Assembly: GCA_037903355.1 (NCBI GenBank)
Contig: JBAJFE010000029.1
Location: 62,001-126,000 of the forward strand
Origin: Trichuris trichiura
Taxonomy: Eukaryota; Nematoda; Enoplea; Trichinellida; Trichuridae
Length of the DNA stretch: 64,000 bases
Direction of reading: 5' to 3'
Shown: piece after piece, positions 38,327-53,225 of the stretch
Layout: the number at the start of each line of letters is the position of its first letter
How positions within the stretch are numbered: position 1 is the stretch's first letter
Notes under the pieces: model-generated
The model's database searches: none
Told to the model about the DNA's origin: nothing
What the model saw: the letters and a program-made list of their open reading frames with translations, nothing else
Translations under genes and position numbers: made by a program

Positions 38327-38698
38327 TTATTCGTTGAAGTTAACTTTTAGTGTTTTCTTGCGGATCACGAATCCGCCACCAAACCAGTCCGGATCAAAAC
38401 GCTGCACACCTTCGGGAGCATTCATCCATTCAAAAGAGATTTCGTCGTTAGCCGTAGTGCTGGGATCGAACGTGAACGCTCTGCACGTTACTTGGAGAAT
38501 GAAATCTTTTTGCGGCGGAATCTGACCAACCCTTGGCGTAAATTTATATCTGGGCACGTTGTTGGCCTTGACGCGAAAGCCCAAAGGTTTCTGACCAGGG
38601 TTGACGATCCGCAAAGAGCAAACCTGGTCGACGGTACAAGGCGCATTGAACCAAAACTCTCTTGTAGGCTCTGTCTTTATGTCGGTTGGTACTGCCAT
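38327..38698 (-). CDS. Major sperm protein (MSP) domain protein
   Basis: A 123-residue single-exon protein made entirely of one MSP domain, the immunoglobulin-like fold used in nematode sperm motility filaments and, in relatives, as a VAP-type adaptor. Recognisable features: EFWFNAPCTVDQVCSLRIVN, PLGFRVKANNVPRYKFTPRV, the Pro-rich turn IPPQKDF, then the ISFEWMNAP and RKKTLKVNF ends that parallel ITVEWTNTP and the RKNLPI C-terminus of classical MSP. Length is close to the 127 residues of classical MSP. Divergence from classical MSP suggests an MSP-domain paralogue, not a filament-forming sperm MSP. Confidence 0.9.
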   Translation of the reverse strand: MAVPTDIKTEPTREFWFNAPCTVDQVCSLRIVNPGQKPLGFRVKANNVPRYKFTPRVGQIPPQKDFILQVTCRAFTFDPSTTANDEISFEWMNAPEGVQRFDPDWFGGGFVIRKKTLKVNFNE

Positions 38699-39788
38699 GT
38701 CCGTTCGAGCTCTTTTTTGAAATCAGCTATGCAACTGTAGCAAAGTGAGCAAAAGCTGACGCTGTTCTGGCGAAAAACGCAGCCGTGCGCTGCTGCTCCC
38801 TCGAATGCAGTAACAAAAATAACTGTTTGTAAGCGTACCAGCGCATAGAAACCGATTTTAAAGTAGCACATGCAATCCACTTTAAAATTTGGTCATAAAT
38901 GATGCTCAGGTTAGCAAAGCAGTTAAGGCCAAAGAAAGCAAATAGACGTACATTAGTGCCTTAACCAAAGTAACTGGCTTTTCTAGCTAATTACAAGACA
39001 GTAGTTGCCTCATAATATGCATTGGCTACTAGTCAAGCAGAGCGTCAACTTAGGGCTAATAGTATTTCGCTTGTATGCATTATGCATATTGTAACGTACC
39101 ATAAAGATGTACTCCACTAAAATTTTTGTACTGCCTAATATGTCGAATTTCTTCTCTCCAGATTGACGTAATAATAAAAACGAGAAATTGATTTGCGCTA
39201 CTCTAGTGCACATGCATTAGCAGCAGTTTCATCCTCTCAGCGGAATATGCAGGCTTCTCATAGAATGGAGTTAAGCAGAAAAATAAGCATTATAAAATTG
39301 AGCCTCAATTCTGAGAATTTCAAAAAGCTCTGCACTGCTCTGGGTTTGTTGAACATCCTGCTAAAAAAACATGAAATTATTAGATTTCGGGAACTAGAAA
39401 AAGGCGCATTAGCTTTTTTATTGTAATCTTGTTAAGAAACAAGCAGCGCTATGTTTTTCTCATTGTTAAAATGGGCAAGTTTCCTTGCGTGCAGAGAGAC
39501 GTTACGGAGACAGAAAATTTTGAAATGAGCAAAATATGTTTGCACGATATTTAAATTTTCTTGCCTCCCTGAAGCCCTTCTGGTCACGTTGCTTTGGTGT
39601 AGCAGTAAAGTTTTAATTTTAAATAGCCCGTTTAGTACACGTAGTTCAATTGGTACCTGCAATTACTTTAACTTGTTCATACTGCAGCGGGAAGGACGGT
39701 ATAATTTTGCTAGTTTGTCTTTCGGTTTTTTGTATTTTTTGCAATTATACTGGTTCTTTTCTAGCTTTCGATTGATTGAAATACTGCA
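38699..39788. other. Intergenic; nothing firm
   Basis: Short frames on both strands without features, between the MSP gene and RIDA, which diverge from here. Confidence 0.5.
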
Positions 39789-40634
39789 ATGGGTCCACCT
39801 GTAAAGAAGATCATATTTACTCCCGAGGCTCCAAAGCCATTGGGTCCGTACAGGTACGTGCGAATGAAGAGCCACTTTCCAAACGTTGATGCAAACAGCT
39901 CAAACTTTTTCGACTAGATTGCACCCTTGGAAGTTTAATATTCTTTGGTGCTTGCAGATAAACCTTGCTTGCTCCTCCTGTTTTGCTTAGCAAGCTTTTT
40001 GAATACCCAACAAACGTTTCGAAGCGCTTCATCCTCTTTGCCCCTTTTGTAAAGCCATATTCGGGTGTAATTGCCGGAGGGAAGGATTCTAAAATTTAAC
40101 TAGGGAAATTGTGACTGGGTATTTTTGCTATGTTAAATAATGGTTTTTTAGCCAAGGTGTTATGGTGGATGGAACTTTGTACATTAGTGGCCAACTTGGC
40201 ATAGATCCCGAAACGTCCAATTTTGTGGGAGGTGGAGCAGATGCACAGTGCCGCCAGGCGCTGAAAAACATTGGCGGGATACTAAAGGCAGCAGGTGGCA
40301 ATTTCGAACACGGTATCCCTTTTGGCTTTATTTAATCCTCCTCCGTAACAGCGACTTTATCTAGTCGTTAAAGCAACTGTATTCCTCGCCAATATGGCTG
40401 ACTGGACCGCAGTGAATAGTGTATACGCAGAATGTTAGTATTGTTTATTGATTTTTAAATATCCTCTTTATTGCTTTATCATTTTGTTCAGTCTTTCCGA
40501 AGAACTGTCCTGCTCGATCAGCTTTCCAAGTTGGCGCTTTGCCAAAGGTACTGGCATTGTAAACATATTTTAATTATACACCATTGGCATTTCAGAATGC
40601 GTTGGTAGAAATTGAGGCAATTGCTCATCTGTAA
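39789..40634 (+). CDS. RIDA: RidA, 2-iminobutanoate/2-iminopropanoate deaminase
   Basis: Hydrolyses reactive enamine/imine intermediates released by PLP enzymes such as threonine dehydratase; works as a trimer. Five exons in phase: 39789-39853, 40152-40312, 40365-40433, 40492-40547 and 40596-40634; 129 residues. Motifs: PKPLGPYSQGVMVDG, LYISGQLGIDP, CRQALKNIGGILKAAG, VVKATVFLANMADW, the substrate-binding Arg in CPARSAFQVGALPK, and the terminal ALVEIEAIAHL. All the usual RidA (YjgF/UK114) signature residues are present. It ends 250 bp from the 3' end of the PGM2 paralogue on the other strand. Confidence 0.95.
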
Positions 40635-40883: not shown

Positions 40884-43800
40884 TCATTTGACATCTGTCA
40901 TGACTAGCCTATTTTGATCCGGTTTTAAGAAATCTTTAATAACGAGTGCTTTCAGGTTTTCAAGTTGACGTCTTGCCGCTTGAACATCCCTAAAATGAAG
41001 GTGAGAAAACGTTGAAGCAATATTTTGACCAGTCCGATAGCTTAGTAGGAAAATAGATACGTACTTGCTTTTCTCCGGGGGTAGTACTATCTCAATGTTG
41101 CATTTTATTCTTTTTTCCGTCCCACCTTGGCGTATAGTAAAAGTACTTCCATCGGACAGCGTATACGTGATCACGTTATAAATAGGAGACCAAGGCGTTG
41201 CCTAGAAAATTTATAGATAGCATTTAATGCCATTCTAAAGGACTTGTTTATACGTTTTTCATCCCTGGCTCACCACTGTTATAGCCCGTCGACAGGTCGC
41301 GCATATGTCTGACCTTGAGCTCACCACGCGAAGCAGTAGACTAAGGATAGGCGTTATGTTCAAAAGAGCATTGCACAGCATATGGGCATTTACTCTTCCT
41401 AGCGCGCCTGCGCGTCTCAAGTCGCTGAAGATTTTAGCCAGATGAGCATTGTCTGAATAGGAGAAAAACGTAGTGCATCCCAAGTGTGCACCGTAGCTGA
41501 AGCATTTAACATATCAGTTTGAACAAAATTCAAAGTATTAAAAATTACGTCGCGTATATCTGTTCCAGTTGGTCACAAAAAGACATACTCTGCGTATAAA
41601 GGTAGGTAGAAAAGTCGGCAAAAATTGCGCAAGTTATTATCGCGTCGCTGTCCATTGCTATGCCTGGCATGTATCCAAGCGCTTCCTCCCACGCGAGCAA
41701 AACTGCTTTCTTTGATGCTCGCAAGTTGTTAGCGCGGTTTGCCAGCCACTTAAAACCGACTAGAGTTTCCTCACACTTGAAACCTTCCTTGGCTGCCATA
41801 GTGCGTGCGAATTTCGACGATCCTGCAGTATTCAGAATGTAAACTTCGTTGGCTATAAAAAGGCTACGATAAATAAAAGGGCCGCTTCGTACGCATAGCA
41901 AACTCACTTTCGGCTTTGGTTTTACCAGATTTCCAATTGGTCCAAAGCCACCAAGTGAGCAATGTACCAATTTCGTTGCCAGAAAATATATGCCAACGAC
42001 CACTAGAGAAATATCCGTTAGGCTTAGACTAAGCAACAACTAAAGTTGTCACTTGGGTTGCTTTTCAGCGAAGCAAAAGTGATCCGCTTCCGGGTCAGTG
42101 CAGAAAATTAAATTGCTGCCGTGCTTCTCAGCCGTTTGAATTGATAGCTTCTAAATGCCCAGAGCTGCTACCGCTGACCGTAGTCGCCTACCTACAAAAG
42201 CCTTTTGTCCTTCTTCAAGGTCGGGATATTCCAAAGTTGGAAAATCGGGATTAGCTTCAGCCTTAAATTGTTTTGCTTTATAATTCAGATCACTTAAGAC
42301 GCTGTCGTCGATACTTGTTCTTTTACGACCACTACGTTCCCTGGAGAAAAGCCAAATTCCTTCAAAACAGCCAAGACAAAGTTCAATCCAACTCCGTGCA
42401 GCGGCGAGTACGTTATCTTTTCCGTCGACAATAGATTCGCGTCGCTATTTTGGCAACTTTGTTATCGCGTAACTTTTAAAAAGCTCAGCTTTACTAATGG
42501 TAGCAATTGTCGAAAGATTCCATTTGATAGCGCATCGAGATGTCATCCAGCGGATCCACGCACAATTCGCGTCTTTCCAAAGCTGATACATCCCAGCTGT
42601 CCATCCAAGGGCTTAGATTGTTTTGCATATGCTTCATAATGTTTCTGTCGTGGGGTGTTGAAACTTCAACTCCGTTTCTCCAATATATCTGAAAGTAAAC
42701 AAACAAGTTCACTTAATTGAACATTTCAACCTGGCGACTACGACCTTGCATCCGTTGTAGGATTTTGAGTCGTGCGACCCGGTTATCATAATACCCGCAT
42801 CACAGTTGTAGCGAATCACAGTGTAGGACTAAAGAAAAATTATACTTGAACAATGAGGGGTGGCAAACAAACGCGTCTTACCATTATTGGAGAAGGAATG
42901 GCTTTGGAGAAAAAGAATACGCGAAATTTCTTTCGCAGGAATATATTCGCGGCGAGTTGAGCAAACCTGAAAATCAACTTACAGTTCGTTTGAATTTCAA
43001 AATATCGCACGCTGATCAAAAAAGGAACGTTTCGCTTTGTCGTACGCCCTCCAGTAGATAGTGAACTCTTCGTCTGGCGTCGCCTCGGTTCCGCATCCTG
43101 ACTTTGATTGGCCATTGTTGCTTGCTTCCAGTCTCAACTCATTTGTTTTAATTCAATTTTTTCGGCCCATCTCCATCGGTTCGCTATCCACCGAATGCCG
43201 CGCGACAACGTGAACACTTCGGCAACTTGTACGATTGCCGCCAAAACGAAGCGTTTGCAAAAAGATGCATATTCATAAGAACTTTCAAAACTCAAAGCAC
43301 GGTGCTGTCTCGTGCTCAGTTTTCTTAGCTTTGAATATGCAAAGTTTTTTGACGGAGTTTTAAAATATTTTTTAATTAGCATATAGGTAAAGCTCGGGAT
43401 GAGATGTACCTCAGGCTATTGCGCCTGCAATCGTAACCAACCGCTATACTTCGTCCTTCCGGGCACGGGTTTACAAGGAGCATATAGTCGCACATTCCTT
43501 GCGTAATTTGAATTACCACAAGCTCATTCATGCGATTGAATCCCGCGCCCATTGGCGCCTTTATGCCTATAGCAGTCAAAGTTAAACAGGCGCTTTATCA
43601 GAGACGAATAATTTACCAGAAATTCCGAAAGACACGTGAGTGGCCAAACGATCTGCAAGTTCGACGAATGCGCCCTCTTTAACAAGCTGCTCTATTTCTT
43701 GACGCGTCTGTTCGTTCTGCATCAGTAAAAATCGAAATGATTACCTTCTTACATAGCAGTGTTTTAAAAAATGGTTCGTTAATAGAATATTTAAGGAAAA

Positions 43801-44157
43801 ATATGCTTCGATGTAAAAATAGCCGCCAGATACCGTATATACCACTGCCAAAGATGGCGGCATAAGAAAAAACAGACTTTTTATTCCCATTACCATTTAA
43901 TTTTTTAGATTAAGAGATGCTTGACAAAAACGCTCTTTCCGCAATGCAATTGAACTTCATACTCGTAAAAAAATTTCAAAATTTGGCCGCTAACAATGTT
44001 TACCGGTACTGGCGTCTCTTGTAACGTTGTATTGATTTTTTTAAGTTCAAAAAATTGAACTGTAACGCTGTTTCGTAATTTGCAAGTTTGAAACTTACCT
44101 TGTCCCAATCTAGCCAAAGCGATATCTGCCTTTCTAGCTTGTCGTCTATGCCTTTAC
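40884..44157 (-). CDS. Phosphoglucomutase-2-like protein, copy A (altered catalytic loops)
   Basis: Downstream member of a tandem PGM2 pair. About 15 exons, roughly the same structure as copy B, all open and in phase; the first exon found (about 44106-44157) follows an acceptor, so the initiating ATG was not located. The fold and sugar-binding loop are kept ([37 protein letters not shown]), but active-site loops differ from the family: Ser loop TGSHDSK (usual TASHNPK) at 42763-42783; metal loop DPEADH (usual DPDADR) near 42076-42093; phosphate loop RQGGTEKR (copy B RGSGTEPK); and FGISG for FGTAG. Inference: an expressed pseudoenzyme or a protein with changed specificity, rather than a decayed pseudogene, because reading frames and splice sites are intact. 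Confidence 0.85.
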
Positions 44158-45536
44158 TAAAATGAGCAATCCGTTGCCAGACTCCTGCAATAACTTGTTG
44201 ACGTGCTTTTCAGCTAATCAAAAGCTTATACGCGTAAGCAACTATGAAGAAAAGGGAGCAGAACATGTGAGAATCTTAAAGGGCGTCATTAACAGAAAAC
44301 AGTTTTAGCCAACAACTATAGGGAGGCAAACAACCAAATCCTACCTTTGAGTACTTCCCAATTTTGCAGTATTGCTTTCTCCATTCAGACGTAGGGAGAA
44401 TACGAAGAAAAGGATTGTTACAAAGGAGCTTTAAGAGAGAATAACAGGGAATGAGTTGGAACCTGCTTGGTTGTACAGTACGTCAGTAAAAAACTATTAC
44501 TGAAGTTGATAGGTACTTGGCAGCTGTCCAAATTGAATGGAGTGTAAAAGTTTCTCATAAACCGAAGCGGATAAGCGTAGGGACTGCACGGATGAATAAA
44601 AATTCATTATACTCAAAGAGAAGTTGGTTGCGAGATACGCTTTAAAGTACAATTAACAAGTTGCAGGAAAGTAATCAAAACTCCTTAAAGGACTAACTTC
44701 AAAACGTCAAACTCTTTGCTTACGCAAAGAACAAACGACGCAGCGCTGCTTTGACAGAACGTTTAAAAGTAAGCAGCAAAAATCATATTGCCGCAAACTT
44801 AATTCGACCGCTTAGGTTGGATTACCTTTGAAAAAGAATTTACACAGATGCATGTCAGCGAGATAGGAATTGAAGCTTACTCCAATTGATCATTGGAATG
44901 TCGTCCAAACGTAGTAACGTTCAGTAACGTCAGCGAATAGGCGCGCTAACCAAAAAAGCAGCAATGGCTATGCTTTTTTAAACAAAAGTATTGCCAAAAA
45001 GTGGTCTCGCAAATTCTTGAATCATTCCAACGTCGGAGTCACCTTAAACTTTAAAATTCTCAAAGTGTTTAAAGAAAACTTTTATTTTGAAACCAATAGG
45101 TTTTCTTTTTCAACAGCCGACATGGTTGCCATTGTTTTTACCTTAGAGATAGAGCCGTTTTTTGTTTACAAAAATTCCCGAAGCTTTCTGAACACTGCTG
45201 ACGCCTACGCCTTCAACGTGTGTAACAAGTTTCCACGTGAACATAGGGTTTAAACAAGAGCTTCGCAGTTTAAGAAAATGAACTGCCAACTGACCTTACC
45301 CCAGAAAAAAGAATGAAGAAAAAAAAGTATTATTAACTACACGAATAGCAGAGATAAAAGCAAACAACTTGATTACTAATAATATGTCAACAAAGGCAGT
45401 GTGGCAACTCGAGAGAAAGTTTACTTTTGCAGTCCGAGGAAAAATGATAAAACTAGTCGCGAGCTGTATTCAGAAAGCGGGAACTTACGTTCAGCAAAAC
45501 TACCTGTCAGAAATTGTACTTTACGTAAAATTGTGT
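44158..45536. other. Spacer between the PGM2 paralogues
   Basis: No exon recognised. It should hold the promoter and any 5' leader exon of copy A. The 120-codon plus-strand frame at 45369-45731 is antisense to the last exons of copy B. Confidence 0.4.
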
Positions 45537-48500
45537 TCAACTGGTAGAGCGCATAATGAGACAATGCTTTTCCGGTTGGAAGAAGTCGCTTATGATCACT
45601 TTTTTCAAATCGTCCAATTGTCTTTTCGCTTCCACCTTATTTCTAACGTAAAGGAAAAAATAACGCTGCAATCAAATATCAATAGGGCATTCCTACAGGC
45701 ACATACTTGCTTTGACTTGGAGGCAGGATGATCTCAATATAGTATTTAACCTTCGGCTCCGTTCCGCTACCTCGTATGGTGAAAGTACTACCATTTTCCA
45801 ACGTGTATGTGATCATATGGTTGGAAGAACTCCAAGGCAAAACCTGAAACCGATTTGTCGAACGATCTTTATTTAAAAGTGCTCATTACAGGTTTGTTGT
45901 CAGGATAGCTATTGTCGTAGCCAACTCCAAGATCCCGAACGTACTTGACTTGGAATTCCCCGCATTTTGCGGCGTACTGAAAACAAAGCATACAAAGCAA
46001 TGGCTGAAGAAATGTTAAACTTACCCCCTTATTAGGGCCTGCTTTGCGAAGATCATCAAACAATGAGACCATGAAATTCGGATTCGGACATCTAAGGTAG
46101 GAGTTGTAGCAAAGGTGAAGACCATAGCTACAATAAAATAATTTACTTAAAATGAACAAATCTCAGTTGCTTTATCTTACTTTGCATAAATGTTTTCTAA
46201 CTGGTCGGTGAAAGTGATCTTTTTGTTGTTAAGAAAAGTAAAAAAATCAGCGAACACCGCGCATGTCACAACACCGTCTTTGTCCAAAGAGGCGCCCGGC
46301 ATATATCCAATCGATTCCTCCCAAGCCAACAGGACGACCTTTCCCTTACTGCGTAATTCGTATGCGCGATTTGCCAGCCATTTAAAACCGGTCAACGTCT
46401 CCTCATATTTGAATCCCTCCTTTTCCGCCATCGTTTTGGCAAACTTTGTCGAAACGGCACTATTGATGACGTAAAAATCTTCATCTGTAAACAAAGACCG
46501 TATCAACTTCTTCTCGTTGCAAAAAAATAATAAACAAATAGATTAACGTGCTTTGCAATTTGTTATTGATGCATTTCCGGTTTTGCCATAACCACCAAGT
46601 CAACAAAGTACCCATTTCGTTTCCTGAAAAAATGTACCACTGCCCGCTGAAATAAGCGGACAATAACACACAACAAAGCATTTGTAAGAGGTTATTACCT
46701 GGGCTGCTTTTCGGCTAGTTGAAATCGATCGGCGTCTGGATCAGTGCAAAAGACAATTTTACTGTTGTTCTCGTCTGCCGTCTTCATTGACAGCTTCTAC
46801 AGAAAATGTCAAGCTTAAGCGGCTATACAAAAATGATAAGCATAAAAAGACTCACAAGAACTTTCTCTCCTTCTTCCGGATTCGGGAATGGGGCAGTAGG
46901 AAAATCGGGATCCGGTTCTGCCTGCGTCAAGTAATCAGCGCTTTAAAAAAAGTTTCAACGCAATATGCTCACTTGCTCCTCTACTAATACTACATTCGCT
47001 GTATTAAAACCGAATTGCTTCAGCATTGGGAGCACGTAAGCAGTTCCCACTCCGTGGAATGCGGAGAACGTCAGTTTGGCAGCTGATGACTTATTGGCAT
47101 CTCTTCAATGCGGAAAGATCAAATACGCGCGGCAGACGCGCTAGTTTGCATACCGATGAAAGCAGAAGGTTGAGTTGTCCACTAAGTATTGGGCGCAAAC
47201 TTCCTTCAGCGGGTCAAGGCATAATGACGAAGTTTGCAAAATGGAAGTATCCCAACATTGTGGCCATGGAGTCAAGTTGCTCTCTATCTGTTTGAGCACA
47301 TTGACATCGTGAGGTGCTACCAGCTTCAACATTGCGAATTGACTTTAAAAAATTACTTATGGAACGCGTCAACATTTCTACCTGGGCTCCGTTGCCCCAG
47401 TACACTTTGTATCCATTGTCATCTTTGGGATTATGCGAGGCGGTAATCATAATCCCAGCGTCGCATTTGTAAAATGTAACAGCGTACGACTGAAGCAAAA
47501 AAAAGAAGCTAAGACTACGCATAATATAAAATATAACAAGCTGAGGCTACGAACTACTCAAGCAGAAACTACGGAATTGTTGAAACTGTCTTGCATGACC
47601 GTCGTCTGCACATGCACGTTGTATGAAAAGCCAAAGATGAGCATAAACCGATGGAAATACTTACAACCAAAGGAGTGGGTACGTATTTTGAGAAAAAATA
47701 AACTTTGACGCCTTTTCGCAAGAAAACGGTTCCGGCAAGTTCAGCAAACCTAAATACAAAACACTTTCAACGTAAGCTCGAACGCTTTTAATTAGCACGT
47801 TGTAGGAACACACTGCAGTTTCACGCAAGCAAACCTTTTTTCGACTTTCGAATTAAAGCAATTTGTTAAGGAGAAGAAGAAGAGCAGATGAATTCGCGTT
47901 GGGATGAAAAGCAAAGATAGCCGGTATACATAAAGAAATAAGAAAGTTTTTCCATGCAAAGTAAAAGCGCTTTTCAAGGAACAAGTTTCTTTTTAATCAC
48001 AAGATATTGCCGCGACCAGTTTGAAATGAAAACGGAAACCGCAAACTATAAAATGCTAAGAGTTTTCCCAAAGAAAAAAGAATATGCACAATGTACAACA
48101 GTCAATACATAAAGCCTGCCAGTTCCGCAGTTTATACTGATGAAGCTGGGAATATGTCAGCATACAAACTTGAAGAACAGACAAAATGCTTAACTACTTG
48201 CAACAATGCCAAAAAGTCTACAGAATAGGATCATCATTGGAATCGTGAACACCCACCACGACTTGAGCCTTCAATTGCTATGAGAGGAGCAACAAAAGCC
48301 TAAACTGTTAATGAATGAACTTCACGTTATGACAGCTATATGCTACGTATTAATGATGCCTTATATATATCATATATTATTCAACATGGAATCGTGGAAA
48401 AGGAGACTGTTCAAGCCTGATCGATAATTCTGAACTTTGCACTTTATAGTAAGCTGAGGGTTTCTGGTGGAAAATCAAAAACATGGAAGCTTGAAATAAT

Positions 48501-51500
48501 GCAACAAAATATGAATACAGGCACTGAATTTTGCGACACCATAACGTAGACGAAGATATGTTGAAAAAAAGTTTTCAATGCGACAATGGAATACGGTTCA
48601 ACAAGAGACAGACACTTCATATTGGGAAATGTATCCAATGCAAACGGGGTGACTGTTGACCCGAATTTTTAAAAAACCGATGGGCTGTTAGCTATTGGCT
48701 ATACGACAGCAAGAAAATGAATAAAGAAAATTTCAAAATAAACATTAACATATTTAACGACTGAAGGCTTAAAAAGGAATAATTTTCCAACTTGGAATAG
48801 AACCACATTCAATAAGAGAGGAAAAGCATCTATTGAAAATAAAAGAATTCAAAACTTTGACTGACAAATCGTCTCAGCCATAAAAAAATTGATAAATTGA
48901 ATTCTACTGTATTCATAACGTCAAAAATGACTACGAGAGTATAAAACGTGAAAAAAACACGAACTTCTTCAAAGCTACAAAAATTGTTGAAGACTCAATT
49001 TCAAAAATGGATGGATGAACTCGCAACCTCGGCTGACAGATGACGCCAAGCAAAAACAGTTGACGGAATAAGCGTAATAGGAACTGACAAATTAAAGCTG
49101 TACTTATATTTTCAAATTATGAAAGCATTAATCACCCCACATCATATTCGCTTGATTTACAGTTGAAAACGGGCCGAGACTGCGACCTGACAGCTCCCGT
49201 CTGAAAACTTTCATCGTTTTAACGGATTATACAATAAATATAATCCATATTATGAAAATACATTGTAGTTCTCTTGCCATCACAGCAATTTAAATAATTC
49301 GATCATATTCATGAAATGCTAGCCTGATGGATAACTCAGTCAAAAATGAAATAGCAAATAGCTTAGCCAGTCAAATTTAAAAAAATCAAAAATCACCTTT
49401 CATGGTGCCACTTGAAAATGATATACCGAGCGACTATTACAGTATGCTGCAACGATTGTCTCAATGCCAAAAATACGGATATGCAATTTTTTAAATTTCA
49501 TTTACGACGAGAAGCGGCAATTTTTTTGCTTATTAAATTGAACGCGGGCACGGTGTTCTTAATTAAGCAGCCATTCAAAATTAGAAACCGCTTCTATCGC
49601 TTCTTCGGCAATTCATCGATCTTCAATCACAATGTGTTCAATTAGCCTACAAGTTATAATTCACTGCAACTAAGTTTTTACAGACTTTGTCTGGCAGACC
49701 ATCAATCGTGTGAGCAATATTGAAAAACTGGAAGTGCTCGCTTAATTAGTCCCAAAGAAAGGAAAAATGCTCGCATCGATGACTACATCGATATATCAAT
49801 TCCGTCAGACGCAAAGGCGTTCTCGATTTTTGTAGTCAGATGGATAGCTTGCAAAAATTGAACTTGTCATATGGACGAATATGCTTGATCATAACACGAT
49901 TTAAGATTGTATTTGAATACGTACTATCTTTCGAGTTAGAGCTTTCTGTACGCTTCATTGAAATGATCAGCTCAGTCCTACGGACGAAATAGAGATGACT
50001 ATAACGCGCTCGGCTTAAGAAATCAAAAGTGTCATATTCGTTCAAAGAGACTAAGCCTTCCATTGTAGTGAAACCTCGCAACGATGTTAGAATCTTTAAG
50101 TCACATTCAGTTTTCGTACACCTATATTCAACAGAGTCAAAATAGGCCATAAGACAAGGCAGAGCAAAGTTGAAACTTCCGCGACAAGAAAGTAACGGAC
50201 AGACTTCTTTTGTTTAAAGATGAAGAATGGCAAAGATAAGCTGAGTTGCCAAAATAATACGTCAGCCTTTATGCAAAACGGCATTGCACATTGTTAAATG
50301 GATTATTTACAAGGCGAAAAACAACGCGGCACTTCATCACGTCGAAGCAGCGAGTAAGTGCAAATTTGGAAAGCAATCTGTCAATCAGCGACGCAAAATA
50401 ATTCATTCTGATGGCCGCAAATCACACGTTTTTGCGAATTACGCTTCGTCCATTTCGCGAAACAGCTGTCTCGCGTCATTTCAAGCGTTAAGAATTTCTC
50501 GTCGATACAAATAAGGTACAGCTACAGAACAGGTAAGACTGTAACATTGTTCGAACGCTTAGTCATAGATTGCAGCAGTTTCCAGCGAAAATCTTCGCCA
50601 TCGACTTTTATCAACCAATCTCGACAAAAAGAATTTGCTACAACAATGCAGGTCATCTATTCTGGAAAACAATAAGGTTAAGAAAAAATAAGAAACGCCA
50701 ACTTTGCTGAATTGATAACTAGATTACTTTCGTGCCACCAATATACGCCTGCGTGAAAAATAATTGTTGATAAATAAACATTTTAAATGAGAAGAACTTG
50801 TATACAAGGTCTTGTAAGGCATTTGAAGCGGGCAGCCAAAAAGTGCCTGCGATATAAACATATTATCTGTTGTTCGGATATGGAGGCGTAAGGTTCGTAA
50901 CGGGTTTGGTGGTTGAACAAGAAATGTACATGGATTTTTCCCGTTTCTATTTGCCCATAAAACGAGTCAAAAAGTGAAAAAACTTTAATGTCGTTCAAAG
51001 GCACTAAGTCTTGTTCATTATCTGTTGTTAGCCTTACGTCATTTGCCATTTCGCGACAGCTAAACAAAATTCGATAATGCGCCTTCAGAGCAGAGGGTTT
51101 GTATGGAGTTCATACCGCCTAAGCTGAAAAGTCCCGCTTATGGCCGGCCGAAAAATATTACCTGTATAGTGAGCGTTGACTTGCAGTAAACTGATCCATA
51201 GCTAAACAGTGGCGCCCATGTGCTCCTAACGGAAATTATTTTTTTGGCCTTTTAAGGACGGGCATACACACAATGCATGACTGCAGGGGTAGTGCAGCTA
51301 ATCCTCATCGTTAGGAAATTAATGTAAACCTCTTATTTCTATTTTTCAGCGTTTTTTGAAAAGACGTTTTTTAGGTCGTCTAGCAAAAATCGTTTTCCAT
51401 TCGAATAAGGAATACATAAACAGGAATTGCTATTTTCGGCGTGCCAAAAAACATCCTAATTGAGCTACGCTAGAAACCTACATTCAACAAAATAATTTCC

Positions 51501-53225
51501 TACAAAGCTCAAGTCAATGCGCATATTGGCGGGTTGCGGATATACTTCCCTTTTGGTGGGCTTATTGCAATATTTTTGAAAATTCGTTAGCAATAACATT
51601 CAGCCTGGGCAAATTGGGAACAAACGTCAGGAATACTAACGCATAGCACAGCGGAACACATGAAAACGTCTAAAATCTTCAAATCGATCATTTTTCCAAC
51701 CGATTTTTGGTATGGGCATGAAGACCGCAGTTGAATAGCTGTAAATTGCAGCTAACGGCGATAGTTACAATGTTAATCAAAATGTATCTCTCTGCAACGA
51801 TTTTCCGCTGTTTCGGGAAAAAGGATTACAAGTACCTCATCTGGAGACTCAAGAACCGAGTAGATTATGAAAGAAATGCCCAATTTTCGGGATAAGGATT
51901 TTCAACTCGTCGTAACAAGTGAACAAGATTAAAAAGTTATACGACCAACGAGGCCGAATGAAGGAACCCATCAAGCGCACAAATTCTGAAAGGAAACACA
52001 AGACAACAAAGTATCCGCCCACGATTTCACCTTATTGAGAACTTATTGCTGCTATTCTCTTCCTTTTGAATTTATTAGTTCATTTTAAAAGTAAACTTGA
52101 ATACCATCAATAATTTTTTCTGTGTTAAATATTTATTCAGGAATTTTTCATATATACTTGACAAGTAACGAAAATTTTCTGAACATATCAAAACAGATAA
52201 GACAAATTGCAAGCTTACACGTCTTCGATTATCCTATTAGTGCTACATAGGTTTCGCATATTGATAACTGTTCAGTATGAGCCATTTCTTGTTTTCCTCG
52301 ATGCTACCAAACAACCTTAGACTAATATCAAATAGGAAGCGCATTGTCTATGTGCGAACAAACGTACACGCGACTTGAAATCAACAGCCCCAATGCAACG
52401 GTCATTAATCAAAACATCATCTCGCACAAACAAGCTGAGATGTTAATGCGTTGTCACGAATCGGAAGGTTACTCTAATGGACTGCGACGCGTATAGAAAG
52501 CATTAAAGAAATTTAAATTTTGACAGGATTAAAATATTGGTATAGTCAGCCAATATACACAGCAAATGAAACTCGGAAGGCGTACCTGCGACTATTGTGC
52601 CGTACATCATAACCAATGACAATGCTCAGATTTTCGGGATTCGGTTTTAATGTTAGCAAGTAGGCGCACAGTCCTTGGGTTGACTGCAGGACTACCAGAT
52701 CATTCATCCTTTTGAATCCAGCACCCATAGTGCCTCGAAGCCCTTTAGATAAAACAAAAAGAATGCACAGAACATGAAAACTAAAAATAAAGTTTACCAG
52801 CTGTGCCAAAAGTGATTCTACCGATCATTCGAGCCCGCAATTCATCTTTTGCATTATCCTTAATCAGCTTTTCCACTTCTGCGCGGGTTTTTTCGTTCTG
52901 TTAAAAAGGCGACTTAGTTTTAACTTCAGAAAAAAATTAAAACATATTTGAACGTCTGCTAAATTAACTAAAACGTGCCCGTTATTTATTATCTTCTAGG
53001 GCAAATAAAGGGCCCGATAGGCGACCGTCTGTCATAAAGAAATTGACAACGTTTTTGCTGTATTTCGAGCTCAATAAGGATGACTGAGTTTTCAAAAACA
53101 AACCAGTAAATACAGCTCACAACAAGCAAAGCTCTTGTAGGCGTAGAAGAAGAAATAATGCATACCTTATCCCATTCCATCCATAAACGAATTTGCTCGT
53201 CCAAAGCAGCGTCTCCAACAGACAT
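45537..53225 (-). CDS. PGM2: Phosphoglucomutase-2 / phosphopentomutase, copy B (canonical)
   Basis: Interconverts ribose-1- and ribose-5-phosphate (and deoxyribose forms), linking nucleoside salvage to the pentose phosphate pathway. Exons include 53166-53225 (start [20 protein letters not shown]), 52798-52897, 52586-52742, then a 4.8-kb intron, 47665-47749, 47382-47489, 47154-47323 and about nine more down to the stop at 45537 (boundaries of the later ones approximate). Catalytic loops are intact: [16 protein letters not shown] with the phospho-Ser (47424-47444 codes TASHNPK), metal loop DPDADR (about 46718-46735), sugar loop AWEESIGYM, and phosphate loop RGSGTEPK. The alpha-phosphohexomutase domains occur in family order. 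Copy A is its tandem paralogue. Confidence 0.94.
47750..52585. other. 4.8-kb intron of PGM2 copy B
   Basis: Far longer than the other introns here. AT-rich. It holds two minus-strand open frames (49836-50150 and 50783-51067) that share a short motif ([10 protein letters not shown] versus [10 protein letters not shown]) and may be fragments of an unrecognised insertion. No domain identified. Confidence 0.45.

What the first reader, a model, noticed from the sequence alone, without database searches (positions are those of the whole stretch)
40884..44157. Tandem PGM2 paralogue that looks like a pseudoenzyme
Copy A keeps an intact multi-exon reading frame but has substitutions in several catalytic loops at once: TGSHDSK for [13 protein letters not shown] for DPDADR, RQGGTEKR for RGSGTEPK and FGISG for FGTAG. 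The sugar-binding EEALGYM is kept. Loss in the Ser loop, metal loop and phosphate loop together, with frame preserved, is the pattern of a non-catalytic paralogue with a new role (sugar-phosphate sensor or partner of copy B).
Basis: partly seen in the sequence, partly recalled or inferred. Interest (0 to 1): 0.75.

Follow-up and report, generated by a model that had tools for sequence, protein, structure and literature searches.

The report
Conserved dead sugar-phosphate mutase in whipworm
Next to a normal sugar-phosphate enzyme gene, this whipworm carries a complete, long-conserved second copy whose active site has been taken apart, so it most likely does a job other than catalysis.

Summary
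Confirmed and extended. Copy A is a complete 16-exon gene (44384-40884, minus strand, 623 aa; 15 of 15 introns GT-AG, no internal stop). Copy B (53225-45537, 601 aa) keeps the canonical loops. The genome looks like a whipworm close to Trichuris muris, which has both copies: B 86%, A 74.5% identical, A ungapped over 619 residues. T. muris A is stripped too (FGVSG, TASCDSK, DPSADH, QESSTEKK), so this is neither assembly slip nor recent decay. The copies probably arose after the Trichinella split and before the two whipworms parted. Neutral decay predicts 5-6 stops on this branch; there are none, and replacements are milder than neutral. Yet A's active-site loops have lost their protection (13 of 43 positions differ between species; B 0 of 43), while a domain-1 block is 44 of 45 identical. 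Best reading: a maintained pseudoenzyme, an independent PGM2 counterpart of vertebrate PGM5, probably acting through a protein surface. A sugar-phosphate sensor is disfavoured; partner of B is open. Expression, branch dN/dS and assays were unavailable. The genome also holds degenerate PGM1 copies, three intact-looking and three decaying.

The parts
44345..44384 (-). Copy A exon 1: ATG start; first part of the A-specific N-terminal extension
   Evidence: Found by matching the T. muris A start (P0007); donor GTAGGATT. No transcript evidence.
44099..44184 (-). Copy A exon 2: rest of the N-terminal extension and ISLWLDWDK
   Evidence: acceptor TTGCAG, donor GTAAGT
43617..43716 (-). Copy A exon 3; ends in loop 0 (FGISG; FGTAG in B)
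   Evidence: loop 0 is FGVSG in T. muris A
43410..43566 (-). Copy A exon 4; holds the block of residues 79-123 (about 43558-43424) that is 44 of 45 identical between the two whipworm A proteins
   Evidence: permutation of the 40-residue maximum, p = 0.0084
42882..42966 (-). Copy A exon 5
42745..42828 (-). Copy A exon 6; Ser loop TGSHDSK at 42783-42763 (T. muris TASCDSK, canonical TASHNPK)
42495..42688 (-). Copy A exon 7; boundary with exon 6 slid by 24 nt against B, summed length unchanged at 278 nt
42315..42444 (-). Copy A exon 8
42196..42261 (-). Copy A exon 9
42053..42150 (-). Copy A exon 10; metal loop DPEADH at 42096-42079 (T. muris DPSADH, canonical DPDADR)
41908..42002 (-). Copy A exon 11
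41549..41852 (-). Copy A exon 12; sugar loop EEALGYM at 41688-41668, both Glu kept; Lys of GFKW kept
41394..41496 (-). Copy A exon 13
41254..41340 (-). Copy A exon 14
41065..41201 (-). Copy A exon 15; phosphate loop RQGGTEKR at 41132-41109 (T. muris QESSTEKK, canonical R(x)SGTEPK)
40884..40989 (-). Copy A exon 16 with the stop codon
52586..53225 (-). Copy B exons 1-3 (53225-53166, 52897-52798, 52742-52586), N-terminal part with FGTAG
   Evidence: T. muris P0001 aligns over them
47750..52585 (-). Copy B intron 3, 4,836 bases
45537..47749 (-). Copy B exons 4-15 with canonical [28 protein letters not shown]
   Evidence: Intron 10 is read as GC-AG: the border was chosen by frame and by A's exon length, and the resulting junction agrees with the T. 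muris protein

Best explanation
Copy A is a maintained pseudoenzyme of the PGM2 (phosphopentomutase/phosphoglucomutase-2) subfamily. A tandem duplication in the whipworm line gave A and B; B stayed the enzyme. In A the loop-0 Thr, the Asn-Pro of the Ser loop, metal ligand Asp-B, the Arg after Asp-C and the phosphate-loop Pro are gone in both whipworm species, lost before or around their split, and the active site has gone on drifting separately in each since. The protein is still made to fold. It gained an N-terminal extension and a frozen domain-1 block, so the likeliest mode of action is binding of another protein (scaffold or regulator, as for vertebrate PGM5), not turnover or sensing of sugar phosphates. 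Shown: intact gene, orthologue in a second species, loss of active-site constraint, rejection of neutral decay, predicted mutase fold of the orthologue. Inferred: no mutase activity, expression, and action through a protein surface.
For: Gene intact: 16 exons, 15 of 15 introns GT-AG, ATG, one terminal stop. Orthologue P0007 in T. muris: 74.5% identical over 619 aligned positions without gaps. Loops in this species / T. muris / canonical consensus: FGISGIKA / FGVSGIRA / FGTAGLRA; TGSHDSK / TASCDSK / [13 protein letters not shown] / DPSADH / DPDADR; RQGGTEKR / QESSTEKK / RTSGTEPK. Both A proteins lose the Thr that aligns by motif with human PGM1 Thr19, whose change to Ala is reported to kill activity; T. 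muris A has Gln at the place of Arg503, where R503Q is reported as complete loss (PMC7761743, passages and section 4.1; alignment made with this worm's own PGM1). Neutral control: 200 simulated pairs at each of three kappa values gave means of 5.1-6.0 stops on the own branch; 1, 0 and 1 of 200 were stop-free; mean BLOSUM62 of replacements -0.56 to -0.46, highest single run -0.05; observed 0 stops and 0.14. Loop protection: A pair differs at 13 of 43 loop and 137 of 558 other positions; B pair 0 of 43 and 83 of 558, Fisher p 0.002. Residues 79-118 are 39 of 40 identical in the A pair, permutation p 0.0084. T. muris A model: pLDDT 87.1, pTM 0.86, with phosphomannomutases and phosphoglucomutases as top PDB matches; T. 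muris B 90.3 and 0.90. Tree: A with B 99/97, Trichinella outside, A stem 0.74 against B stem 0.16. Rarity: a screen of 236 rows (A, B and the 234 hits listed, of 7,993 and 814 found) flagged 8: A, P0007, the Meloidogyne protein P0131 (TVSQNPT, DADANR), P0138 with one substitution besides a gap, and 4 with gaps in a loop only.
Against: In this species A keeps Ser, His, Asp-A, Asp-C, a Glu for Asp-B, the Lys of GFKW and the first phosphate-loop Arg, so weak or altered activity is not excluded. Among canonical-invariant columns, change in A is not significantly enriched in the loops: 13 of 34 against 19 of 87, p 0.11; T. muris A 11 of 34 against 17 of 87, p 0.15. No T. muris DNA, so no dN/dS on the A branch; A-B dS is saturated. 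No expression data. The N-terminal extension differs at 11 of 24 positions and is modelled with low confidence. The domain-1 block was picked from the data as the best window. The fold was predicted for the orthologue only.
Confidence: 0.6

Rival explanations
1. A is still an enzyme, with shifted or weakened chemistry: for example a slow mutase, a phosphatase of sugar bisphosphates, or a synthase like PGM2L1, using Ser174 and a metal site with Glu in place of Asp-B.
For: Ser, Asp-A, Asp-C, the Lys of GFKW and both sugar-loop Glu are kept in both species. In the Cryptosporidium tandem PGM1 pair both copies are active (PMC8781159, abstract and outline). In a bacterial homologue, mutation of the TASH His was not fully fatal (PMC7761743 passages).
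Against: The losses differ between the two species (Glu or Ser for Asp-B; His or Cys; Arg or Gln), so no new active site is being conserved; the loops have no special protection. Loop-0 Thr is lost in both.
Confidence: 0.2
2. A is a regulator of B, for example an inactive partner in an A-B dimer.
For: Tandem position in the same orientation; conserved domain-1 block and N-terminal extension. Some bacterial homologues dimerise, in some cases through an N-terminal extension on domain 1 (PMC7101342 passage).
Against: The same passage says there is no indication that mammalian PGM1 is other than a monomer. Nothing here ties A to B physically.
Confidence: 0.2
3. A is a decaying duplicate that has so far escaped stops.
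For: A evolves faster than B (terminal branches 0.19 and 0.14 against 0.058 and 0.096), and conserved sites are relaxed.
Against: Neutral simulation rejected on stops and on the kind of replacements. Ungapped in two species. Decaying mutase copies in the same genome show stops or missing stretches and pairwise dN/dS of 0.50-1.16 at dS of 0.08-0.24.
Confidence: 0.1
4. Assembly or gene-model artefact.
For: One assembly only; exons were joined by hand, and several B borders were re-chosen after a first model broke frame.
Against: An independent T. muris record has the same A protein; the exons of A have the lengths of B's apart from one slid boundary and the N-terminus.
Confidence: 0.02

Closest known systems
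PGM5 (aciculin), vertebrates
   [quoted passage not shown] loop-0 Thr replaced in mammals, TASH His replaced in herring, phosphate loop different from PGM1; known to bind other proteins, with filamin C at its N-terminus (PMC7761743, passages and section 4.1).
   Different: PGM5 is a PGM1 relative confined to vertebrates (PMC5570346 passage); its metal loop is conserved but for one Gly to Ala, and it still binds substrate (PMC7761743). A derives from PGM2 in a nematode and has lost a metal ligand and phosphate-loop residues.
PGM2 / phosphopentomutase (copy B and orthologues)
   Same: Subfamily by tree and by exon lengths; 51% identical to B.
   Different: DPDADR, TASHNPK and SGTEPK, near-invariant in the canonical rows, are broken in A.
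PGM2L1 (glucose-1,6-bisphosphate synthase)
   Same: A PGM2-type paralogue with an altered Ser loop (TASHNRKE, PMC5570346 passage).
   Different: PGM2L1 keeps TASH and DPDADR and is an enzyme confined to vertebrates (same passages).
Parafusin, Paramecium
   Same: PGM relative described as a signalling scaffold without PGM activity (PMC7761743 passage); its structures are among the 50 matches listed for the T. muris A model.
   Different: Its resemblance here is that of the general fold; that it is closer to PGM1 than to PGM2 is recalled.
Cryptosporidium PGM1A/PGM1B tandem pair
   Same: Tandem duplicated phosphoglucomutase genes in a parasite.
   Different: Both are active enzymes (PMC8781159, abstract and outline).

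Membership tests
alpha-D-phosphohexomutase superfamily (fold) | Domains I, II and III recognisable by profile | tested here: met
   A hits PF02878, PF02879 and PF02880 above the curated cut-offs; PF00408 (domain IV) is not reported for A or P0007, and reaches 20.7 bits in P0001, under its cut-off of 23.1
alpha-D-phosphohexomutase superfamily (fold) | Mutase fold | tested here: met
   Tested on the T. muris orthologue only: pLDDT 87.1, pTM 0.86; phosphomannomutases and phosphoglucomutases head the PDB list.
PGM2 subfamily (ancestry) | Groups with PGM2 proteins, sister to copy B | tested here: met
   99/97 support with B in a 32-row tree; the alternative of B plus Trichinella without A: AU p = 0.028
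catalytic PGM2 enzyme | Catalytic Ser in TASHNP | tested here: inconclusive
   Ser kept in both; TGSHDS here, TASCDS in T. muris
catalytic PGM2 enzyme | Three metal-binding Asp (DPDADR) | tested here: not met
   Asp-B is Glu here and Ser in T. muris; the following Arg is His in both
catalytic PGM2 enzyme | Phosphate-binding loop R-x-S-G-T-E-P-K | tested here: not met
   RQGGTEKR and QESSTEKK
catalytic PGM2 enzyme | Mutase activity | not testable with these tools
   needs purified protein
pseudoenzyme | Coding frame and fold kept by selection while catalytic residues are lost | tested here: met
   and for the orthologue's fold; direct dN/dS on the A branch not possible
PGM5 / aciculin | Descent from PGM1 | tested here: not met
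   A is PGM2-type by tree (PGM1 not included) and 51% identical to B; this genome's PGM1 is a separate single-exon gene
PGM5 / aciculin | Binds cytoskeletal proteins (dystrophin, filamin C, Xin) | not testable with these tools
   no binding data
PGM2L1 | TASH and DPDADR kept, synthase activity | tested here: not met
   TGSH / TASC, DPEADH / DPSADH; activity not testable
decaying pseudogene | Stops, frameshifts, lost splice sites | tested here: not met
   none in A; inner stops in the PGM1-like copies L036 and L038, and no match for residues 225-541 in L036 and L037

The most novel reading that the evidence does not exclude
Whipworms keep a set of dead phosphohexomutases, made independently from PGM2 (copy A) and from PGM1 (intact-looking copies near C51:230k, C1:5219k and C1:1494k; all three lack the Lys of the GWKFF loop and two lack the catalytic Ser), recruited as binding proteins for a whipworm-specific structure or secretion process.
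Probability: 0.25. Interest if true: 0.75.

Novelty: new variant of a known kind. Interest (0 to 1): 0.52.

Why it matters
The dead phosphoglucomutase described in animals, PGM5, is a relative of PGM1 in vertebrates. A dead PGM2 in a nematode would be a second, independent case and could show what the mutase fold offers once catalysis is gone. It also warns that whipworm annotation should not count copy A as metabolic capacity. The frozen domain-1 block is a concrete place to look for a partner.

Tried and rejected
Enrichment of A's changes in the loops among canonical-invariant columns: not significant, so the argument rests on loop drift between species instead. dN/dS of A against B by NG86: dN 0.387, dS saturated; the YN00 run failed. 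Amphipathic helix in the N-terminal extension: no better than shuffles, 913 and 2009 of 5000 as high. A search with the C-terminal 377 residues of A found no hit above 50% identity besides P0007 in the 120 listed of 131; these hits were not screened by motif. Solved structures by sequence: only distant phosphohexomutases, best E 6.6e-14. Trace of shared intron sequence: of 14 intron pairs, four had few shuffles as high (7, 8, 10 and 16 of 200), none significant after 14 tests; of B's long intron 3 only the first 400 bases were compared. A first B model with other borders broke frame and was re-chosen by frame and by comparison with A. Paper searches: Trichuris with phosphoglucomutase, 6 papers listed, none on this gene by title and start of abstract; phosphoglucomutase with pseudoenzyme, 1 paper, on phosphoglycerate kinase; Trichuris muris with pseudoenzyme, 0; Trichuris with gene duplication and stichosome, 5, none on this gene by title. 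So no earlier report was found, in a library that lacks most subscription journals. A search for a phosphohexomutase dimer interface with domain 1 found no paper.

Full report
What is there. The window is part of contig C27 of a 72.7 Mb genome. On the minus strand lie two PGM2-type genes in tandem. Copy B (53225-45537) has 15 exons and 601 codons, copy A (44384-40884) 16 exons and 623 codons. Exons 2 to 15 of B and 3 to 16 of A have the same lengths one by one, except the pair 108+170 (B) against 84+194 (A), whose sums are equal. A caution: a first B model broke frame; several B borders were then re-chosen by frame and by comparison with A, so part of that agreement is by construction. The result reads as one frame that aligns with T. 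muris P0001 over 601 positions at 86.2%. All 15 introns of A are GT-AG; of B's 14, one is GC-AG, and its junction reads into the same protein as T. muris P0001.

Whose genome. The nearest protein to B is Trichuris muris P0001 (86%), the nearest to A is Trichuris muris P0007 (75%); Trichinella follows B at 58%. I take the host to be a whipworm other than T. muris; the genus is inferred from these proteins only. In the own genome, a search with B scored 22 candidates and gave 21 matches: 20 in these two genes and one in the PGM1 gene.

Is A alive? P0007 aligns to A over 619 residues without a gap. In simulation of neutral change up to the observed 25.5% difference, the own branch alone collected 5.1 to 6.0 stops on average, and 1, 0 and 1 of 200 runs (kappa 1, 2, 4) were stop-free; for both branches together 0 of 200 were stop-free each time. 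The observed replacements are conservative: mean BLOSUM62 0.14, 70% non-negative; neutral runs averaged -0.56 to -0.46, and the best single run -0.05. B's replacements are milder still (0.55). Of 14 paired introns of A and B, none shows similarity that survives correction for 14 tests, though three had 7 to 10 of 200 shuffles as high, while the exons align throughout. As a control, the same genome holds PGM1-like copies that do decay: L036 has one inner stop and L038 two; no match for residues 225-541 was found in L036 and L037; pairwise dN/dS among L035-L038 runs from 0.50 to 1.16 at dS 0.08-0.24 (NG86, six pairs). One further stop each in L035, L039 and L040 lies at the edge of an exon match, and I read it as intron.

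Is the active site gone? Against 114 canonical rows (B and its orthologue included), 121 columns are at least 97% invariant; A differs at 32, T. muris A at 28, B at 4, T. muris B at 3. Changed in both A proteins are the loop-0 Thr (Ile/Val), Asn-Pro of the Ser loop (Asp-Ser in both), Asp-B (Glu/Ser), the Arg after Asp-C (His in both) and the Pro of the phosphate loop (Lys in both). T. muris alone has His to Cys and the first phosphate-loop Arg to Gln; this species alone has Arg to Lys in loop 0 and Ser to Gly in the phosphate loop. Kept in both are the catalytic Ser, Asp-A, Asp-C, the Lys of GFKW and both sugar-loop Glu. By alignment with this worm's PGM1 the lost Thr sits at human Thr19 and the lost Arg of T. 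muris at Arg503; the human numbers are carried over by motif. For human PGM1, T19A is reported to kill activity and R503Q to abolish it (PMC7761743, passages read and section 4.1). TASH and the three Asp are described as kept in all five human paralogue groups (PMC5570346, passages).

A result against a simple story: A's changes at invariant columns are not significantly concentrated in the loops (13 of 34 against 19 of 87, p 0.11; T. muris 11 of 34 against 17 of 87, p 0.15). The clearer signal is the present rate. Between the two species, A differs at 13 of 43 loop positions and 137 of 558 others (p 0.46), B at 0 of 43 and 83 of 558 (p 0.002) (the six loops were named by me). So the active site has lost its privilege in A, and the rest is relaxed only about 1.65-fold.

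When. In a 32-row tree A and B are sisters (99/97) with Trichinella outside; A's stem is 0.74 against B's 0.16. Holding B with Trichinella to the exclusion of A is rejected weakly (AU p 0.028; the group was named after the tree was seen). The duplication therefore probably postdates the split from Trichinella and predates the split of the two whipworms, and most change fell on A's stem.

How it may work. Two features point away from the active site. Residues 79-123 are 44 of 45 identical between the A proteins, more than in the B pair (39 of 45), yet only 27 of 45 match B; the best 40-residue window has permutation p 0.0084, and the longest identical run (33) p 0.0055. In the T. muris model this block holds a long helix and a strand of domain I. 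A also has an N-terminal extension absent from B, present in T. muris A (13 of 24 identical), of low model confidence and no clear amphipathic pattern. Domain IV changes most (56 of 133, domain borders set roughly by me). I infer a binding surface in domain I. The precedent is PGM5, which binds filamin C through its N-terminus (PMC7761743 passage), and bacterial homologues that dimerise, some by an N-terminal extension (PMC7101342 passage). A sensor of sugar phosphates would need its ligand loops; their free drift speaks against it.

Rarity. A residue screen over 236 rows (A, B and the 234 proteins listed, a part of the 7,993 and 814 found) flagged 8: A, P0007, P0131 of Meloidogyne (His to Gln and Asp-C to Asn), P0138 with one substitution, and 4 rows whose flag comes from gaps. 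So stripped PGM2 proteins are rare but P0131 shows that A may not be the only line.

Structure. The best PDB matches are phosphomannomutases and phosphoglucomutases; PGM5 and parafusin are among the 50 matches listed.

What remains open: expression, activity, branch dN/dS, partner. The verdict is a new, independent case of a known kind of thing, a dead phosphohexomutase, with some chance that it belongs to a larger whipworm set.

Noticed in passing
L035 (C51:228000-237000), L039 (C1:5216500-5225500), L040 (C1:1490500-1499500): Multi-exon PGM1-like paralogues with no stop inside the exon matches apart from one each at an exon edge, but with broken active sites: Ser loop TASHSPGG, SAGRRLGG and ATRNQKEK; the Lys of GWKFF lost in all three; phosphate loop RLFDVSTT in L035, QISNYGND in L039. 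My note gave the L035 metal loop as DADGVS; that reads into an intron, and the loop may be DADG+DR across it. A canonical single-exon PGM1 sits at C5:404k (L001).
   Followed up: partly
L036, L037 (C51), L038 (C39): Decaying PGM1-like copies with inner stops (L036, L038) or stretches without a match (L036, L037) and dN/dS of 0.50-1.16; used here as a decay control.
   Followed up: partly
window 47750-52585: Intron 3 of copy B is 4,836 bases, while 23 of the 29 introns of the two genes are 45-75 bases; its content was not examined.
   Followed up: no
window 46551: Copy B intron 10 begins with GC instead of GT in my model; the junction gives the same protein as T. muris.
   Followed up: partly
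window 42744-42689 against 47489-47324: The exon 6/7 border of A is slid 24 nt against B, and A's intron start matches B's donor region at 14 of 15 bases; possibly a relic of the old donor, not significant after multiple tests.
   Followed up: partly
P0131 (Meloidogyne enterolobii): Another degenerate PGM2-like protein (TVSQNPT, DADANR) in a gene model joined to FLYWCH and filamin domains; may be a bad model.
   Followed up: partly
window 38327-38722 and about 39790-40320: Open frames that look like a major sperm protein domain and a RidA/UK114 protein; names are recalled from the translations, not searched.
   Followed up: no
PMC6556364: A table in a Trichinella spiralis selection paper lists phosphoglucomutase-2 with dN/dS 2.29 in one pairwise comparison; passages only were read, and such distant pairs may be saturated.
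   Followed up: no
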